A stretch of DNA of 64,000 nt from contig CAJAIJ010000020.1 of assembly GCA_903939845.1 (NCBI GenBank), positions 1 through 64,000 on the forward strand. The letters run 5' to 3'. Positions 2,941 to 50,637 of this stretch are shown here, one piece after another (position 1 is the first letter of the stretch; the number at the start of each line of letters is the position of its first letter). The DNA is from an uncultured Solirubrobacterales bacterium. GTDB taxonomy: Bacteria > Actinomycetota > Thermoleophilia > Solirubrobacterales > 70-9. The position numbers and the translations under genes were made by a program. Below the pieces are notes generated by a model, which was given only the letters and a program-made list of their open reading frames with translations, was not told the DNA's origin and searched no databases.

Positions 2941-3461
2941 TCGCCGGAACGGTCGAAGGGCAGAGGGCCGGACGGGGTGACGGCCTGATCGGGGTCGTCT
3001 TCGAGGACGGCAAGCAGGTCGGCGACCGGACTGCCGTCGGGGAGTTCGAGGTCCGGTGCGATCTCGAGCAGCGGCACCAGGACGAACCGGCGGGTAGAGA
3101 CCTCGCGGTGCGGAAGAGCGAGGCGGTCTGACTCGAAGACGACGTCGCCGAGCAGCAGCAGGTCGACATCGATGATCCTCGGTGAATGGCGCGGCAGGCC
3201 GGTCTCGCGACCCATCTCGGCCTCGACCGATTTGCAGAGGTCGAGCAGCCCCTGGGGCTCGAGGTCGGTCTCGACCGCGACCACGGCATTCAGGAAATCG
3301 GGCTGATCGAGGATCTCGCCGACCGGCTGGGTCCGGTAGCCCTCCGATACGGCCCTCACGATCAGGCCCTTTCCGGCGAGCATCTCGATCGCGCGAGCGA
3401 GATTCGTCGGTGGATCACCGACGTTCGAGCCCAGTCCGAGGTAGGCGGTTCTGGCCGTCAA
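2937..3461 (-). CDS. folK: 2-amino-4-hydroxy-6-hydroxymethyldihydropteridine pyrophosphokinase
   Basis: Transfers pyrophosphate from ATP to 6-hydroxymethyl-7,8-dihydropterin in folate synthesis. The 174-residue protein opens with AYLGLGSNVGDP and carries the signature PRIIDVDLLLLGD followed by LPHREVSTRRFVLVPLLEIAPD, which includes the magnesium-binding Asp pair. The start is TTG 3461, overlapping the folB stop (TTGA); no ATG lies near the conserved N-terminus. The product feeds FolP, encoded two genes upstream. Confidence 0.93.
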   Translation of the reverse strand: MTARTAYLGLGSNVGDPPTNLARAIEMLAGKGLIVRAVSEGYRTQPVGEILDQPDFLNAVVAVETDLEPQGLLDLCKSVEAEMGRETGLPRHSPRIIDVDLLLLGDVVFESDRLALPHREVSTRRFVLVPLLEIAPDLELPDGSPVADLLAVLEDDPDQAVTPSGPLPFDRSGE

Positions 3462-43128: not shown

Positions 43129-44574
43129 GTGTCACGGGAACTGACGAAGTCCGGAGTCTGGCCGACCACCCCGCCGACCGGCGAGGAGCGGGCTGCATAC
43201 GCCGATGCCGCTCCGATCCCGTTCTGGCTGGACCGGGACGGTCGCCCGGCACCGAGGCCACCGCTGGAAGGCGAGGTCGAAGCCGACCTGGTGGTCGTGG
43301 GGGGCGGCCTCACGGGCCTCTGGGCTGCCCTGAGGGCGGTCGAGGAAGAACCCGACCGATCGGTCGTGGTGATCGAGTCGGAGGGAGTCGGGACGGGTGC
43401 CAGCGGCCGCAACGGGGGCTTCATGTCCTCGTCGCTCGTCCACGGCATCAGCAACGGGCTCAGCCGGTTTCCGAAAGAGGTCGGACGACTCGAGCAGCTG
43501 GGGCTCGAGAACCTGGACGGGATCGGGCAGACGATCGAACGGCTGGGGATCGAGTGCTCGCTGACCCGACCAGGGGCGATCGAGGTCGCGATGACGGATG
43601 GTCAGATGGCCGAGCTGGCGGGCAAGGTCGAAGAACTCGAGAAGTACGGCCACGAAGCCGCGCTGCTCGACCGGGACGAGATGGCGGCCGAGGTCGACTC
43701 GCCGCTCTTCACCGGAGGGCTTTGGCAGAAGACGGGCGAGTGGGCGGTAGATCCGGTCGCGCTCTGTGACGGCCTCGCGTCGGCGATCGAGCGCGCCGGT
43801 GGCCGTATCTTCGAATCGACCCGGATGACCTCTCTCGAAAAGGACGGAGCCGGCGTCGCCGTGGTCTGCGAAGGGGGCCGGATCCGGGCCCGTAATGCCC
43901 TGCTCGCGACGGCGGCCTTCCGGAGTCCGGTGAGAGCGATCCGCTCGAGAGTGATCCCGGTCTTCGACTACGTGCTGGTGACCGAACCCCTCTCTGACGC
44001 CCAGTGGGATGCGGTCGGATGGAGTCGGGGCCAGGGCCTGTCCGATTCGGCCAACCGGTTCCACTACTACCGGCCGCTGCCGGGGGGAAGGATCCTGTGG
44101 GGCGGATACGACGCGATCTACCACTACGGAGGCCGGGTCGAGGAGAGCCACTACCAGCGTGACGCCAGCTTCGCCGGCCTCTCCCAGAGGTTCTTCACCG
44201 CGTTCCCCCAGCTGGAGGGCATCCGGTTCACACACCGGTGGGGCGGCGCGATCGACACCTGCTCGCGATTCTTCGCCTTCTACGGAACCGCCCTGGACGG
44301 CCGGGTCTCATACGCGGTCGGCCATACCGGACTCGGCGTCGGCGCAAGCCGTTTCGCTGGCCGGGTCGGCCTGGCCCTGCTCGACGGGTCCGATCCCGAT
44401 CTGCTCGCCATGGACTACGTCCGCAGCAGGCCGGTCCCCTTCCCTCCCGAGCCACTCCGGTGGGCGACGATCGAGCTGACCCGAAACCGTTTGGCCGAAG
44501 CCGATCGCCGGGACGGCGAAGAGGGACTCTGGCTCAGGCTCCTGACCCGCCTCGGGCTCGGTTTCGACAGCTGA
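43129..44574 (+). CDS. FAD-dependent oxidoreductase of the DAO (glycine/D-amino acid/gamma-glutamylputrescine oxidase) family
   Basis: A 481-residue flavoenzyme. The Rossmann loop VVVGGGLTGLWAALRAVEE and VVVIESEGVGTGASGRNGGF are typical; the latter SGRNGG block resembles covalent-flavin and PuuB-like members. Also seen: LLATAAFRSPVRAIRSRVIPVFDYVLVTEPL, GGYDAIYHYG and the C-terminal YAVGHTGLGVGASRFAGRVGLALL FAD contact. The amine substrate is unknown. The start is GTG 43129, leaderless by context. A CCCTG/CAGGG hairpin follows the gene. It marks the left border of the restriction island. Confidence 0.85.
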   Translation: MSRELTKSGVWPTTPPTGEERAAYADAAPIPFWLDRDGRPAPRPPLEGEVEADLVVVGGGLTGLWAALRAVEEEPDRSVVVIESEGVGTGASGRNGGFMSSSLVHGISNGLSRFPKEVGRLEQLGLENLDGIGQTIERLGIECSLTRPGAIEVAMTDGQMAELAGKVEELEKYGHEAALLDRDEMAAEVDSPLFTGGLWQKTGEWAVDPVALCDGLASAIERAGGRIFESTRMTSLEKDGAGVAVVCEGGRIRARNALLATAAFRSPVRAIRSRVIPVFDYVLVTEPLSDAQWDAVGWSRGQGLSDSANRFHYYRPLPGGRILWGGYDAIYHYGGRVEESHYQRDASFAGLSQRFFTAFPQLEGIRFTHRWGGAIDTCSRFFAFYGTALDGRVSYAVGHTGLGVGASRFAGRVGLALLDGSDPDLLAMDYVRSRPVPFPPEPLRWATIELTRNRLAEADRRDGEEGLWLRLLTRLGLGFDS

Positions 44575-44646
44575 ACCCTGCGGAGAACAGGGACAGCTCA
44601 CGAAGCTTCTGAGCCAAAGACCTGATCGTCCGCCCGAGTGGAACTC

Positions 44647-45363
44647 CTAATCCAAGAAGGCGCTCAATCCGTATTTGTCGTCTGAGGACATCCAAACCCC
44701 TGCTCTTTCGGGGGCGGGAATCTCGTAGACCCCGGTTCCCATGCGCTGATTCTGGGTCTGGCCCGGGACCCGACCACTCCCTAACTCACGAATGTGGCTG
44801 ATGTCTCTAATCAGGAGCGCTCTGTCTCTCACCAAGTCGAGGCAAAGAACCGAGTAGTCGGACTCACCCTGAAGCCTTCGAAACTTGGCTGGCTTGAGGC
44901 TAATCACGCCTTGCCTTCCCCAGTAGCCGTCGAAATCGGTAAAGAGCTCCAAGCTTCTGCCGCCAACGAGAAAATCAGCGGACCCACCGGGAGCATCCCT
45001 GAACTCTCTGGCTTCATCGTCCCCCGAGAACCCGATGCGCAGCCCAAAGTCTTCAGACACGAGGTTGTAGAAGGCATCTTCCACAAGCCACCCGGCTACA
45101 AGGGAGAAGGCGTAGTCATAGGGGGAGCGGTTCTGTCGGTAAAAGGAATTCCCTCGGCTTCCCGCGGTGTCAAGCAGGTGGGCTTTGGCGGGCGCGGACA
45201 ACTCGCCCGTACGAGTCAAGATGACCTTGAAGAACGCTGCCTTGTCCTCGGCGAGGGACGGGGTAACTTGAACTCCACCGTAAAAGTCATCGATCGCTTG
45301 ATTCAGCGAGGGCCACCGGTGCCGGGCCAACCAGCGCTCAAGGTTCCGGACCTTTGACTTCAT
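44647..45363 (-). CDS. Candidate type II restriction endonuclease (PD-(D/E)XK-like)
   Basis: A 238-residue protein. The region around 90-160 has a helix with Glu (GWLVEDAFYNLVSEDF), then SADFLV (D130), RSLELFTDFDGYW (E139) and LKPAKFRRL. The spacing D...ELxTDxxxYW followed by a Lys-bearing element resembles several type II nucleases such as MjaI-like enzymes; a clean D/E-x-K triad is not visible. Neighbours (vsr and a C5 methyltransferase) make a nuclease role likely. Codon use is less GC-biased than outside the island. ATG 45363 was preferred over TTG 45375. The recognition site is unknown. Confidence 0.5.
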   Translation of the reverse strand: MKSKVRNLERWLARHRWPSLNQAIDDFYGGVQVTPSLAEDKAAFFKVILTRTGELSAPAKAHLLDTAGSRGNSFYRQNRSPYDYAFSLVAGWLVEDAFYNLVSEDFGLRIGFSGDDEAREFRDAPGGSADFLVGGRSLELFTDFDGYWGRQGVISLKPAKFRRLQGESDYSVLCLDLVRDRALLIRDISHIRELGSGRVPGQTQNQRMGTGVYEIPAPERAGVWMSSDDKYGLSAFLD

Positions 45364-45448
45364 TCTGTCGGTCAAATCCTCGATCGACGAATGGTTTCAC
45401 ATATTCACCTCGGTTTCGCCCGCCCGACCTCTCTTCTCGCCTTCAGGG

Positions 45449-45898
45449 ATGCCCAAGGGTCCCAGACCAGCGCCAGAGGCAAGTCCGGAGGCAGCTAGGG
45501 CCACCATGGTCTCGAACCGTGGCCGTGACACCAAGCCCGAACGGGAGATCCGATCAGCCCTCCACCGATCTGGACTTCGCTTTCGAAAGCACTCAGGGCT
45601 CCTGCCAGATTTGCGCTGTGAGGCAGACATCCTTTTCCCCGGGGAACCGATTGCCGTGGTCGTTGATGGCTGCTTCTGGCAGCTCTGCCCAAGGCATGGA
45701 CAAATTCCAAAAGCAAACGAGACCTGGTGGAGGGGCAAGTTCCATGCGACCAAATAGCAAGATCGCCGAAACGCCCGCATCCTCTCGGAGCATGGCTGGG
45801 AGGTAATCCGCATCTGGGAGCACGAGTCAGTTTCGGATACATCAAGGAAGGTCGAAGAAGCTGTGAAGCGACGGCGATCCGTCCCCATCCCGCAATAG
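45449..45898 (+). pseudogene. vsr: Very-short-patch repair endonuclease gene interrupted by an in-frame TAG
   Basis: Vsr nicks T:G mismatches that arise at 5-methylcytosine sites. Codons 1-102 give the N-terminal part (RGRDTKPEREIRSALHRSGL, then ADILFPGEPIAVVVDGCFW with C-x...CPRH zinc-site residues), then TAG at 45755-45757. The same frame continues without gap to TAG 45896: QDRRNARILSEHGWEVIRIWEHE, the conserved Vsr C-terminal block. So a single nonsense codon divides an otherwise full-length 149-codon gene. The usual His after GCFW is Gln. The stop lies 10 bases before the methyltransferase start. Readthrough or a sequencing error is possible. Confidence 0.82.
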
Positions 45899-45901
45899 AC
45901 T
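45896..45901 (+). promoter_or_regulatory. Candidate -10 element of the cytosine methyltransferase gene
   Basis: TAGACT, overlapping the vsr terminal stop codon, ends 7 bases before the ATG at 45909, so the methyltransferase may have its own leaderless transcript. Confidence 0.4.
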
Positions 45902-45908
45902 CGCCTTA

Positions 45909-47048
45909 ATGAGCGGGTCGGATCCCTTCACCCAACTTCCCCCAGTTCTAGACCTCTTCTCCGGAGCGGGGGGGCTTTCTCAAGGTTTCGCGAATGCCGG
46001 CTTTGCCGTACCGTATGCCGTCGACAATTGGGATGTGGCGTGCGAGACTCACCGCCTCAACCACCCCCGTTCGGAGACGCTTTGCGGCGACATACGCGAG
46101 GTGAGCGACAAAGAGATCGAAAGACGGTTCGCTGATGCCGGAATCGTCGTCGGAGGACCGCCTTGCCAGGGTTTCTCCACTGCCGGGAAACAGCTTCTTG
46201 ACGACCCAAGGAACCGACTCGTCGAGGAGTTCATCCGAGTCGTGGCGATTGTCCAACCAGAGGCCTTCTTACTGGAGAATGTCGAAGGGCTCGCAAAACG
46301 CTCAGGCGGACAGCTAGTTGCAGAGCTTCGATCACGGTTCGAAGCCATGGGCTACTTAGTGGCACAACAGATCTTGGCTGCGGTTGACTTCGGAATACCG
46401 CAAAAAAGGCGGAGGTTCATGATGCTGGGCCTCCGTGCGGGACTGCCCGTCTTCCCGGTCCCAACCCACCACTTCCGAAGGGGTGGGCAGCAGCCGCTCG
46501 GACTCGAACCCGCGCCCACCTTTGATGATGCGACTTCGGATCTACCTGCTGTCGCTGCCGGAGAGGAGAACGGCACCTATGCGGGGCCACCGAGGAACCG
46601 CTTCCAGGAATCCATGCGCGAAGGAGCGACGGACCTCACTCTCCATAAGGCCCCTTCCCACAAGCCGCATATGGTTGCGTTGATGAAACATATCCCTCAA
46701 GGGGCCTCGGCGTTCGATGTACCCGACCAGATTCCTGACGAATTGATGCCCAAGAGCGGTTTTCCAAACTCCTACGCTCGAATTCGCCCCGATCAGCCAG
46801 GGCCTACCATTACTCGAAACTTCACAACGCCGAGTTCGGCCAATTGCATTCATCCGCACCATGACCGAGCCCTAACGCTCCGGGAGGGTGCGCGCCTGCA
46901 GACATTTCCCGACCGCTACCGATTCGCTGGGAACTTTGGAGACATGCGCCTCCAGATCGGAAATGCAGTACCACCAAACCTGGCCGAGGCCGTCGCCCGG
47001 CATGTGGCCTCTGCACTGAGGCAACAGGAAACCTTAAGGGCCTCTTAG
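45909..47048 (+). CDS. DNA (cytosine-5-)-methyltransferase
   Basis: A 379-residue modification enzyme. Motif I PVLDLFSGAGGLSQGF binds SAM, motif IV GGPPCQGFSTAG carries the catalytic Cys, motif VI is LLENVEGL, motif VIII IPQKRRRFMMLGL, then a target-recognition region at about 185-270, motif IX IRPDQPGPTITRNF and motif X RLQIGNAVPPNLAEAVA. It is complete. Codon use includes TTA and other A/T-rich codons rare elsewhere in the window. Vsr lies directly upstream, and nuclease candidates flank on both sides, so it is most likely the modification subunit of a type II system with a Dcm-like specificity that cannot be read here. Confidence 0.94.
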   Translation: MSGSDPFTQLPPVLDLFSGAGGLSQGFANAGFAVPYAVDNWDVACETHRLNHPRSETLCGDIREVSDKEIERRFADAGIVVGGPPCQGFSTAGKQLLDDPRNRLVEEFIRVVAIVQPEAFLLENVEGLAKRSGGQLVAELRSRFEAMGYLVAQQILAAVDFGIPQKRRRFMMLGLRAGLPVFPVPTHHFRRGGQQPLGLEPAPTFDDATSDLPAVAAGEENGTYAGPPRNRFQESMREGATDLTLHKAPSHKPHMVALMKHIPQGASAFDVPDQIPDELMPKSGFPNSYARIRPDQPGPTITRNFTTPSSANCIHPHHDRALTLREGARLQTFPDRYRFAGNFGDMRLQIGNAVPPNLAEAVARHVASALRQQETLRAS

Positions 47049-47064
47049 AACCATCTCGCCCGAG

Positions 47065-47937
47065 TCAACGAATCGGGGTGATAGCGGAGATGCTCCCGAG
47101 CTTGTGGTGGAACTGAATCTGCCCTTGATGGTATTGAAGCCAACCGAATGGCATGTGGATGGTCGAACCACCATTTCGGCTCCCTGGCGCAACCAATCCA
47201 CCATTATTCGCAACGGCCAGCTTGAGGTCATCGACGGCTACCACGGAGTCGAGGTCCTGAGAATCTGGGTCGACCAGATTCCGATACCACAAAAAGTCAG
47301 CCCAGTCTTGGTGGTCGGCAGCCAGACCCCTGGAAAAACAGAACTCACAGATCTCACCGATTGAATCCGTCAGCCATTCCAGTAATGCCCTCGCAATACG
47401 CTTGTCAAAGCGCTGAAGCGTTTCCCAGACCATTCGACTCTGGTAACGGGTCTCCATGGCCCTGATCCGCGAATCATATGGCGTCACATTGTTCAAAGCT
47501 TCATCCGACTCGTCAGAACCGCCGATGAACAGTGACAACCCCCTCGCTACATCCGGTGGCACTGCGCTGAAATGCCTACCAAAGCCTTCAAGAAACCGTT
47601 CGACCGTGATCAGGAACACCTGCCCGCCCTCACTTTTCTTGACTGAGATTTGCGAAGTGCTCTCGACGCCACTCCAAGAAACCCTCACATCTGCCTTTGA
47701 CTTGGTCGTGTCTCCCAAGATGGACGGAACGCCAACTTCTGACTTCCCAGCATGGGCCATTTCCACAGAGCCGCCAGGTGCGCTTACACCGACCCGTTGG
47801 GCTAGAGCGCTCATCCCCTCAGGAGACTTGAGGCATTGAACGAGAAGTATCTCGTTCTCATGTCCGGAGGCCTTTGCGTACTTCCAGCCGTCAGCCCGAT
47901 TTCGGTTCCCACTTGACACCGAATCGAATCCTCCCAT
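47065..47937 (-). CDS. Candidate restriction endonuclease convergent with the methyltransferase
   Basis: A 290-residue protein with no family I can name. Residues about 80-110 (TKSKADVRVSW ... STSQISVKKSEGGQVFLI) place an Asp (D83) before a strand with Lys-Lys and GGQ, a pattern found in PD-(D/E)XK restriction enzymes; the N-terminal NRADGWKYAKASGHENE helix is also seen in some. No enzyme class is certain. It ends 16 bases from the methyltransferase stop. The start is uncertain: ATG 47937 was chosen, ATG 47994 is possible. The base composition matches the rest of the island. Confidence 0.48.
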   Translation of the reverse strand: MGGFDSVSSGNRNRADGWKYAKASGHENEILLVQCLKSPEGMSALAQRVGVSAPGGSVEMAHAGKSEVGVPSILGDTTKSKADVRVSWSGVESTSQISVKKSEGGQVFLITVERFLEGFGRHFSAVPPDVARGLSLFIGGSDESDEALNNVTPYDSRIRAMETRYQSRMVWETLQRFDKRIARALLEWLTDSIGEICEFCFSRGLAADHQDWADFLWYRNLVDPDSQDLDSVVAVDDLKLAVANNGGLVAPGSRNGGSTIHMPFGWLQYHQGQIQFHHKLGSISAITPIR

Positions 47938-48026
47938 GAACAGAATGTGAACGATTGCCGGTTCGGCCCACGGTTGGGGGCAAGAGGGCATCACAACATC
48001 GGCACCTACCGCCTCATCCCTTTGAA

Positions 48027-48043
48027 CATGTGCAGCTCACATG
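48027..48043. repeat. Inverted repeat at the right edge of the restriction island
   Basis: CATGTG-CAGCT-CACATG, a 6-base inverted repeat in the 47938-48081 gap. It may be an operator, or a weak terminator of the flanking leftward ABC operon whose stop is at 48082. The gap otherwise holds nothing recognised. Confidence 0.3.
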
Positions 48044-48081
48044 ATTTCGTTGCGAGACGCGGAAGTAGGGCCGCTCTCCCC

Positions 48082-50637
48082 CTACTCGTAGGAGATCGCC
48101 TCGAGTACATCCAGCTTTGCGGCCTTGCGGGCCGGGTAGACCGCGGCCAATACGCCGGCGAGGGCGCTGAGGACGAGGATCAGGGCGAGAGTCCCGATCG
48201 GATAGCTCAGCACGAAGCCCTCGCCCTCCAGCGGAATTCCCATCAGGAAGGCGAACAGGATGCCGAGGATCAGTCCTGCGATCGCCCCGAGCACGGCCGT
48301 GATCACTGCCTCGTAGGTGACCATCCGACGGACCTGCCGGCGGGACATGCCGATGGCCCTCACCATTCCGAGCTCACGGGTGCGCTCGTAGATGGAGAGG
48401 ATGAGGGTGACCACGATCCCGACGAGAGAGACCACTACGGCCAGCGCAAGCAGGACATAGATCAGTGCCAGGAGGGCATTGATCTGCTCCTTCTGGCGGT
48501 CCTTCAGCTCCTCCTGATTGAGGACCTCCACGGTCGGGAAGTTCGTCCGATCGAGCCTGTCGGCCACCCGGTTCTTGACCTCTTCGACATCGGCTCCGGA
48601 ATCGACCCGGGCCAGGGCGAACTGGTCCTCGGCCACGCCGAAGTTCTCGAGCATCGAGGGTTCGGCCACCACGATGTCCCCGAGCAGATCGAGGTTGCCC
48701 GATGCCATGATCCCGATCACCTCGAGCTTCGTCCTCGTGCCGGTGGGAGAGAGAACCCGGAAGTCGTCGCCGATAGCCAGACGTTCGGCGCTGGAAAGAC
48801 CCTGCGAGATCACTGCCTTGTCTCCCGAGAGCTCGGCCAGGGCCCTGGGGGAGCCCTCGGCCCAGTCGACCTGGATCACCTGGTCGACCGTGTCCGGCTG
48901 GACCGAAGAGAGCTGGCGCTCGCCAGACCCGGCAACCTTGATCTGGGCGAAGCGGATCCCCGAGGCGGCCCTGACGCCGTCGACCTTTGCGGCCTCACGC
49001 ACCGCTTCCGGCGGAATCGGAACGAATCCGCCGGGACCCTGGAGCACGATCTCGCCCTCGAGGTTCTGGTCGATGACGTCGGTCACCGAGCTGTTCAGGC
49101 CGGAGGCGAAGATCGAGACGAAGGCGACCAGGGCTATGCCGATCATCAAGGCGGCCGAGGTGACGGCGGTCCGCGAAGGACTGCGGAGTGCATTCTCGGT
49201 CGCCAGCCTTCCAGTCAGGCCGCCGACGGCACGAACGGGGATTCCGATCAATCTGACCATCGGCTGGATCAGGCGGGGGCTGAAGATCGAAATCGCGACC
49301 ACCAGCGCCACGGCGCCGCCTCCGATGCGAGCGGCCCCTGCCCCGCCCTCTATGTCGTCGACCAGGACCGAGGCGATGAGCGCTACTCCGATGACGGCAA
49401 GAACGATCGCGACCAGGGCACGAATCCAGAGTCGGGTCCGGCCCGTCTGGAGGACGTTCTCGGAGAGGGCCGCAATCGGCGGCACCCTCGTTGCCCGGAA
49501 GGCCGGAATCAGGGAGGAGACCAGGGTCACTCCGACTCCGACGATGAACGAGGCCACGATCGTTCGAGGTGCGATCACGAGTGACTTGCTCGGAAGCTCG
49601 GCCCCGAAAACACTGAGCAGGGCACTGAGGCCCTCGGCCAGAGCAATGCCCACCAGCAGGCCGAGTCCCGAAGCGATCAAACCGATCAGGACTCCCTCGG
49701 CCAGAACCGTGGCGAGGATCTGCCGTCGGGATGCACCGAGGGTTCGCAGCATCCCGAATTCACGGGTCCGCTGGGCGACCGTGATCGAGAAGACGTTGAA
49801 GATCACGAAGGATCCGACCAGCAGCGAAATCGCGGCAAATGCGAACAGGGCGATCGTCAGGAAGCTGAGGCCGTCGCGAATGTCGCTCGCCTGGCGGTCG
49901 GCATTCTCCTGGCCGGTCTCGACCAGGAGGTCGGCCGGCAGGACCTCGGCGATCCGATCCCTCAGCTCTTCGTCGCTGACCGTGCCGTCACCACCGACGG
50001 AGATCTGGTCGAACCTGCCTTCCCGACCGGTCAGGGACTGAGCCTCGGAAAGGGTGACCTGTGCGATCGAGGTTCCGCCGAAAGAGGCTCCACCGAGCTG
50101 AGTGAGCCCGACCACCTCGAAGAGTCGGGCCGGACCCGACCCGATCAGGCGGATCCTTCCCCCGATCTCGACCCCTCCCCGCTTGGCCGCCTCGAGATCG
50201 AGCGCGGCCTCTCCCGGCCGGTCGGCCTTCCGACCCTCCACGTACTCGATCGAGGAGAGCCGGGATGGCAGCCCGGAGGAGATGAACTGGGGCGCGAAGG
50301 GTGCCCCGGTGGACTCGTTCTCGAGGTTGAGGATCGAGCCGGTCGCGAAGACCGAGCCCTGGGCGACCTCGACGCCCTGGACCGAACGAACCCGCTTCAG
50401 ATAGCTCTCGGAGAAGGCCGGGACGCTGCCGTCGAACTGGCGGACCTGCTCCTGCCGGGTGACCGTCACGTCTATCCGCTCGTTGGAGCGGACGAAGATG
50501 TCGTCGAAGGCCCCGTTGGTGGTGTCGGTCAGGACATAGGTGCCCGAAACAAGAGCGATGCCGAATACGACCGCAATCGCGGTCATCGCAGTCCGCCACT
50601 TGCGGGCGAAGAGGTTCTTCAGGCTTAGCCGGAGCAA
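48082..50637 (-). CDS. MacB/FtsX-type ABC transporter permease
   Basis: An 851-residue membrane protein with two FtsX domains. An N-terminal helix (MTAIAVVFGIALVSG) leads into a large extracytoplasmic MacB-periplasmic-core domain. Three helices with the FtsX pattern (TVAQRTREFGMLRTLGASRRQI) end the first half; a duplicate half follows, ending with IYERTRELGMVRAIGMSRRQVRRMVTYEAV and three helices. Such exporters act mechanically on lipoproteins, peptides or antibiotics. The start is TTG 50637, 10 bases after the ATPase gene; no better start exists near the conserved N-terminus. Confidence 0.9.
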   Translation of the reverse strand: MLRLSLKNLFARKWRTAMTAIAVVFGIALVSGTYVLTDTTNGAFDDIFVRSNERIDVTVTRQEQVRQFDGSVPAFSESYLKRVRSVQGVEVAQGSVFATGSILNLENESTGAPFAPQFISSGLPSRLSSIEYVEGRKADRPGEAALDLEAAKRGGVEIGGRIRLIGSGPARLFEVVGLTQLGGASFGGTSIAQVTLSEAQSLTGREGRFDQISVGGDGTVSDEELRDRIAEVLPADLLVETGQENADRQASDIRDGLSFLTIALFAFAAISLLVGSFVIFNVFSITVAQRTREFGMLRTLGASRRQILATVLAEGVLIGLIASGLGLLVGIALAEGLSALLSVFGAELPSKSLVIAPRTIVASFIVGVGVTLVSSLIPAFRATRVPPIAALSENVLQTGRTRLWIRALVAIVLAVIGVALIASVLVDDIEGGAGAARIGGGAVALVVAISIFSPRLIQPMVRLIGIPVRAVGGLTGRLATENALRSPSRTAVTSAALMIGIALVAFVSIFASGLNSSVTDVIDQNLEGEIVLQGPGGFVPIPPEAVREAAKVDGVRAASGIRFAQIKVAGSGERQLSSVQPDTVDQVIQVDWAEGSPRALAELSGDKAVISQGLSSAERLAIGDDFRVLSPTGTRTKLEVIGIMASGNLDLLGDIVVAEPSMLENFGVAEDQFALARVDSGADVEEVKNRVADRLDRTNFPTVEVLNQEELKDRQKEQINALLALIYVLLALAVVVSLVGIVVTLILSIYERTRELGMVRAIGMSRRQVRRMVTYEAVITAVLGAIAGLILGILFAFLMGIPLEGEGFVLSYPIGTLALILVLSALAGVLAAVYPARKAAKLDVLEAISYE

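What the first reader, a model, noticed from the sequence alone, without database searches (positions are those of the whole stretch)
45755..45757. Single in-frame TAG splits an otherwise intact vsr gene
The frame is open for 102 codons, meets TAG, and continues in the same frame for 46 codons with the full conserved Vsr C-terminus (QDRRN ... GWEVIRIWEHE). There is no frameshift. This may be a recent loss of mismatch repair, which would raise C-to-T mutation at the methylated site, a translational readthrough, or a sequencing error.
Basis: seen in the sequence. Interest (0 to 1): 0.62.

Follow-up and report, generated by a model that had tools for sequence, protein, structure and literature searches.

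The report
Doubly broken vsr repair gene
A bacterial DNA-repair gene that sits beside a DNA-methylating enzyme has been put out of action by a premature stop codon and by the loss of a catalytic amino acid, which makes it an ordinary decaying gene and not a case of stop-codon readthrough.

Summary
The TAG at 45755-45757 is real and in frame: 102 codons before it, 46 after it, no frameshift. "Otherwise intact" is wrong. Codon 78 (CAG, Gln) stands where the catalytic His of Vsr (E. coli H69) is found in 183 of 183 homologues, and codon 104 (CAA, Gln) stands where Arg is found in 181 of 182. Even if read through, the protein would lack an active-site residue. Readthrough is unlikely: TAG ends 14 of 39 genes called in the window and also the next gene of the same cassette; the assembly has no CUA-anticodon tRNA; and no other vsr found in 232 genomes of the order has a stop inside. 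The gene lies in a 3.5-kb low-GC cassette (unknown gene A, vsr, cytosine-5 methyltransferase, unknown gene B) inserted between two genes that lie next to each other in 14 congeners. The methyltransferase keeps every near-invariant position. Best reading: a vsr pseudogene in a horizontally acquired methylation cassette, leaving an apparently intact m5C methyltransferase without its repair partner. A raised C-to-T rate is plausible but unshown, since the target motif is unknown. An error at the TAG cannot be excluded without reads, but it would not rescue the gene.

The parts
45449..45898 (+). vsr pseudogene (frame read across the internal TAG to its second stop, TAG 45896-45898)
   Evidence: TIGR00632 hit on both sides of the stop; only vsr in the genome
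45755..45757 (+). in-frame premature TAG, codon 103
   Evidence: no other vsr in 232 genomes of the order has an internal stop in its matched stretch
45680..45682 (+). codon 78 CAG (Gln) at the position of the catalytic His (E. coli H69)
   Evidence: His in 183 of 183 homologues; alignment; active-site residues as listed in PMC12907096
45758..45760 (+). codon 104 CAA (Gln) at a position that is Arg in 181 of 182 homologues, next to the active-site Asp (E. coli D97)
45909..47048 (+). cytosine-5 DNA methyltransferase, 379 aa, apparently intact; the only PF00145 protein in the genome; ends in TAG
   Evidence: PF00145 E 5.6e-67; all near-invariant positions kept; single copy
44647..45375 (-). gene A of the cassette, 242 aa, no family known; possible restriction component (inference from position only)
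   Evidence: no hit in Pfam, NCBIfam, PADLOC, PHROGs, PDB; one weak match in 396 genomes of the phylum
47065..47994 (-). gene B of the cassette, 309 aa, no family known; possible restriction endonuclease (inference from position and a D...SVK-like stretch)
   Evidence: no significant hit
44575..48081 (.). inserted cassette between the FAD oxidoreductase (43129-44574) and the ABC permease (48082-50637)
   Evidence: the two flanking genes adjoin with gaps of 8-780 bp (13 of 14 at most 150 bp) in 14 congeners; GC 54-60% against mostly 63-69% outside; GC3 0.61-0.69 against 0.76-0.88 in the other genes called

Best explanation
The gene is a vsr pseudogene. A small methylation cassette (vsr, m5C methyltransferase, two unknown flanking genes) was inserted between two convergent genes of this actinobacterial lineage. 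Its vsr then lost function through at least two changes: replacement of the catalytic His by Gln and a premature TAG; a third change, Arg to Gln, sits beside the stop. The product now made would be at most a 102-aa fragment without the C-terminal active-site Asp and the last conserved strand. The methyltransferase is still predicted active, so T:G mismatches at its methylated sites would lack VSP repair. Shown here: the lesions, the insertion, the intact methyltransferase motifs, the single copy. Inferred: loss of activity, the order of events (the lesions could also predate the insertion), the mutational effect.
For: TAG in frame. Catalytic His lost, 0 of 183 homologues share Gln; Arg lost; most private changes at conserved columns among 146 close homologues. 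169 of 174 homologues that cover them keep all five active-site positions. No ORF from an in-frame start behind the TAG in the six-frame list, so no sign of reinitiation. TAG is a normal stop, 14 of 39 genes in the window. 47 tRNA genes, none with anticodon CUA, in 1,901,821 of 1,901,919 bases. Methyltransferase motifs all kept. Cassette absent from 14 congeners. No second vsr.
Against: No reads and no second genome of the species were available, so the TAG itself is a single observation from what looks like a metagenome-assembled genome. The frame has no indel and no second internal stop, so the decay is slight. Gln at the catalytic position has not been tested biochemically here.
Confidence: 0.87

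Rival explanations
1. Sequencing or assembly error: the TAG, and perhaps the neighbouring Gln codon, are consensus errors and the gene is full length.
For: Draft assembly in 59 contigs; no reads available; a single-base change is enough for the TAG.
Against: The catalytic His-to-Gln change 75 bases upstream is a separate lesion, so a full-length protein is still predicted inactive; several errors in one short stretch of one gene are unlikely while the methyltransferase beside it has none at conserved positions.
Confidence: 0.08
2. Programmed or suppressor readthrough of TAG makes a functional Vsr.
For: The frame beyond the stop is open for 46 codons and conserved; the readthrough frame passes the TIGR00632 cut-off.
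Against: No CUA tRNA; TAG ends 36% of the genes called in the window and the next gene of the cassette; none of the other vsr places in the order has a stop inside its matched stretch; the product would lack the catalytic His.
Confidence: 0.03
3. The truncated or Gln-variant protein has a new non-catalytic role, for example binding T:G mismatches or regulating the methyltransferase.
For: The N-terminal half, with the conserved Phe-Trp, is kept; the catalytic change could precede the stop.
Against: No relative with the same change was found; nothing shows selection on the fragment.
Confidence: 0.02

Closest known systems
Vsr mismatch endonuclease (TIGR00632, PF03852), E. coli Vsr with Dcm
   Same: Homologous over the full profile when read through; lies next to an m5C methyltransferase, as 22 of 30 vsr loci of the order do in the flank held.
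   Different: Catalytic His replaced by Gln, premature TAG, Arg next to the active-site Asp replaced.
Neisseria NgoAXIII, a vsr followed by a truncated methyltransferase (PMC6789123)
   Same: A vsr-methyltransferase pair in which one partner has decayed.
   Different: There the methyltransferase is truncated and vsr is kept; here it is the other way round.
E. coli dcm-6 (nonsense allele that also removes vsr activity; PMC4444293)
   Same: A nonsense mutation that removes VSP repair.
   Different: A laboratory mutant, with the stop in dcm; here a natural genome with the stop in vsr and the methyltransferase kept.

Membership tests
Vsr endonuclease | Full-length match to the curated profile | tested here: met
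   Only when the stop is read as X: 99.2 bits against 97.85; the real 102-aa product scores 69.5 bits and fails.
Vsr endonuclease | Active-site residues equivalent to E. coli E25, D51, H64 (Asp in most relatives), H69, D97 | tested here: not met
   E31, D60, D73 present; H69 equivalent is Gln; the D97 equivalent lies after the stop (residues from PMC12907096).
Vsr endonuclease | Uninterrupted reading frame | tested here: not met
   TAG at codon 103.
Vsr endonuclease | Nicks at T:G mismatches in the methylated motif | not testable with these tools
   Needs biochemistry.
Cytosine-5 DNA methyltransferase (PF00145) | Catalytic motifs (PCQ, ENV, QxRxR, GNAVP) and full length | tested here: met
   All positions conserved at 85% or more are kept; PF00145 13-366.
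Type II restriction-modification system | A restriction endonuclease beside the methyltransferase | tested here: inconclusive
   Genes A and B have no known family and single-sequence folds failed, mean pLDDT 35 and 32.
Stop-codon readthrough or TAG recoding | Decoding tRNA, or TAG not used as a stop | tested here: not met
   No CUA tRNA; TAG ends 14 of 39 genes in the window.

The most novel reading that the evidence does not exclude
A Vsr with Gln at the catalytic position is made by UAG readthrough and serves as a non-cutting mismatch-binding protein for the adjacent methyltransferase.
Probability: 0.02. Interest if true: 0.5.

Novelty: new member of a known kind. Interest (0 to 1): 0.13.

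Why it matters
It is a natural instance of an m5C methyltransferase that has lost its dedicated repair partner, in a genome where no NucS was found either, so conspecific genomes could show whether C-to-T change rises at the methylated motif. Otherwise it is an ordinary pseudogene.

Tried and rejected
Close relatives of the cassette: none in genome contigs with the methyltransferase, and in 61 relatives nothing nearer than 45% identity, so no orthologous base at the TAG could be read. Structure predictions of genes A and B from single sequences are useless, so no fold search was run. Relatives of genes A and B in plasmids, phages and viral contigs: none where searched. Motif depletion over the whole assembly: CTAG and GTAC are the lowest palindromic tetramers, with no clear sign that points to this methyltransferase; the motif is unknown and the cassette young, so this is no test. 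Counting private substitutions over the whole set of homologues did not single out this gene, because distant relatives have more; restricted to 40% identity or more it ranks first. No RNA family in or near the cassette and no tRNA in the window. No terminal repeats that would mark an insertion mechanism stood out.

Full report
What is there. The frame that starts at ATG 45449 runs 102 codons to TAG 45755-45757 and goes on for 46 codons to a second TAG at 45896-45898, without a frameshift. The two parts match consecutive parts of the Vsr profile TIGR00632 (5-92 and 98-119 of 119). Read with X at the stop the frame scores 99.2 bits, just over the curated 97.85; the 102-aa piece alone scores 69.5. 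It is the only vsr in the 1.9-Mb assembly.

More than one lesion. An alignment with relatives from the same order showed that the motif CFWH reads CFWQ here. Over 184 distinct homologues from three collections, the position is His in 183 of 183 that cover it, and codon 104 is Arg in 181 of 182; this gene has Gln at both. The His corresponds to E. coli H69, listed among the active-site residues E25, D51, H64, H69 and D97 (PMC12907096); the mapping to this sequence rests on our alignment and on the known E. coli motif. The search patterns allowed His or Gln at this place, or lay elsewhere in the protein, so the tally is not forced. Of 174 homologues that cover all five active-site positions, 169 keep them. 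Within the 146 sequences of at least 40% identity this one has the most private changes at conserved columns: 3, against 0 in 117 sequences, 1 in 25 and 2 in 3. Over the whole set, distant relatives have more, so the strength of the case is the catalytic residue and not the count.

Not readthrough. TAG ends 14 of 39 genes called in the window, and also the methyltransferase that follows in the cassette. ARAGORN on 1,901,821 of 1,901,919 bases finds 47 tRNA genes and none with anticodon CUA. In 232 genomes of the order, 47 have a vsr; this is the only place with a stop codon inside its matched stretch. There is no ORF from an in-frame start directly behind the TAG in the six-frame list, so reinitiation of the C-terminal part is not expected.

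The surroundings. GC falls to 54-60% between about 44,600 and 48,050, against mostly 63-69% outside, and GC3 is 0.61-0.69 in the four genes of this stretch against 0.76-0.88 in the other genes called. The genes on either side, an FAD oxidoreductase and an ABC permease, lie next to each other with gaps of 8 to 150 bp in 13 congeners and 780 bp in a fourteenth; here 3,507 bp lie between them. The stretch is therefore most simply a recent insertion in this lineage. It holds gene A (-), vsr (+), a cytosine-5 methyltransferase (+) and gene B (-). The methyltransferase keeps every position that is conserved at 85% or more in its relatives and is the only PF00145 protein of the genome. Genes A and B have no known family and almost no relatives; a restriction role is a guess from position. 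Vsr genes of the order commonly adjoin an m5C methyltransferase: 22 of 30 in the flank held, median gap 90 bp.

What it means. Vsr repairs T:G mismatches left when 5-methylcytosine deaminates (established for E. coli Vsr and Dcm). With vsr broken and the methyltransferase intact, those mismatches would go without VSP repair; no NucS was found (the assembly is 92% complete), and three proteins of the uracil-DNA glycosylase superfamily are present, whose substrate range was not tested. Whether C-to-T change is raised could not be tested: the motif is unknown and no relative carries the cassette.

Verdict. An ordinary vsr pseudogene with at least two independent disabling changes in a horizontally acquired methylation cassette. 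An error at the TAG cannot be excluded without reads, but would leave a Vsr without its catalytic His.

Noticed in passing
G082:C1:1181006-1181343 (another genome of the order): A vsr in two overlapping pieces in different frames (profile 7-69 and 67-119), probably a frameshifted copy or a sequencing error.
   Followed up: no
window 47065-47994 (-) and 44647-45375 (-): Two genes without known family that flank vsr and the methyltransferase in the cassette; candidates for an undescribed restriction component.
   Followed up: partly
whole assembly G000: No NucS (PF01939) match, although the control actinobacterium Corynebacterium glutamicum has one; the assembly is 92% complete.
   Followed up: no
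whole assembly G000: CTAG at 0.27 and GTAC at 0.50 of the Markov expectation.
   Followed up: no
L215, match 3001-3285: A Vsr relative in a viral contig with Ala at the position of the active-site Asp (E. coli D97) and a changed GW motif.
   Followed up: no
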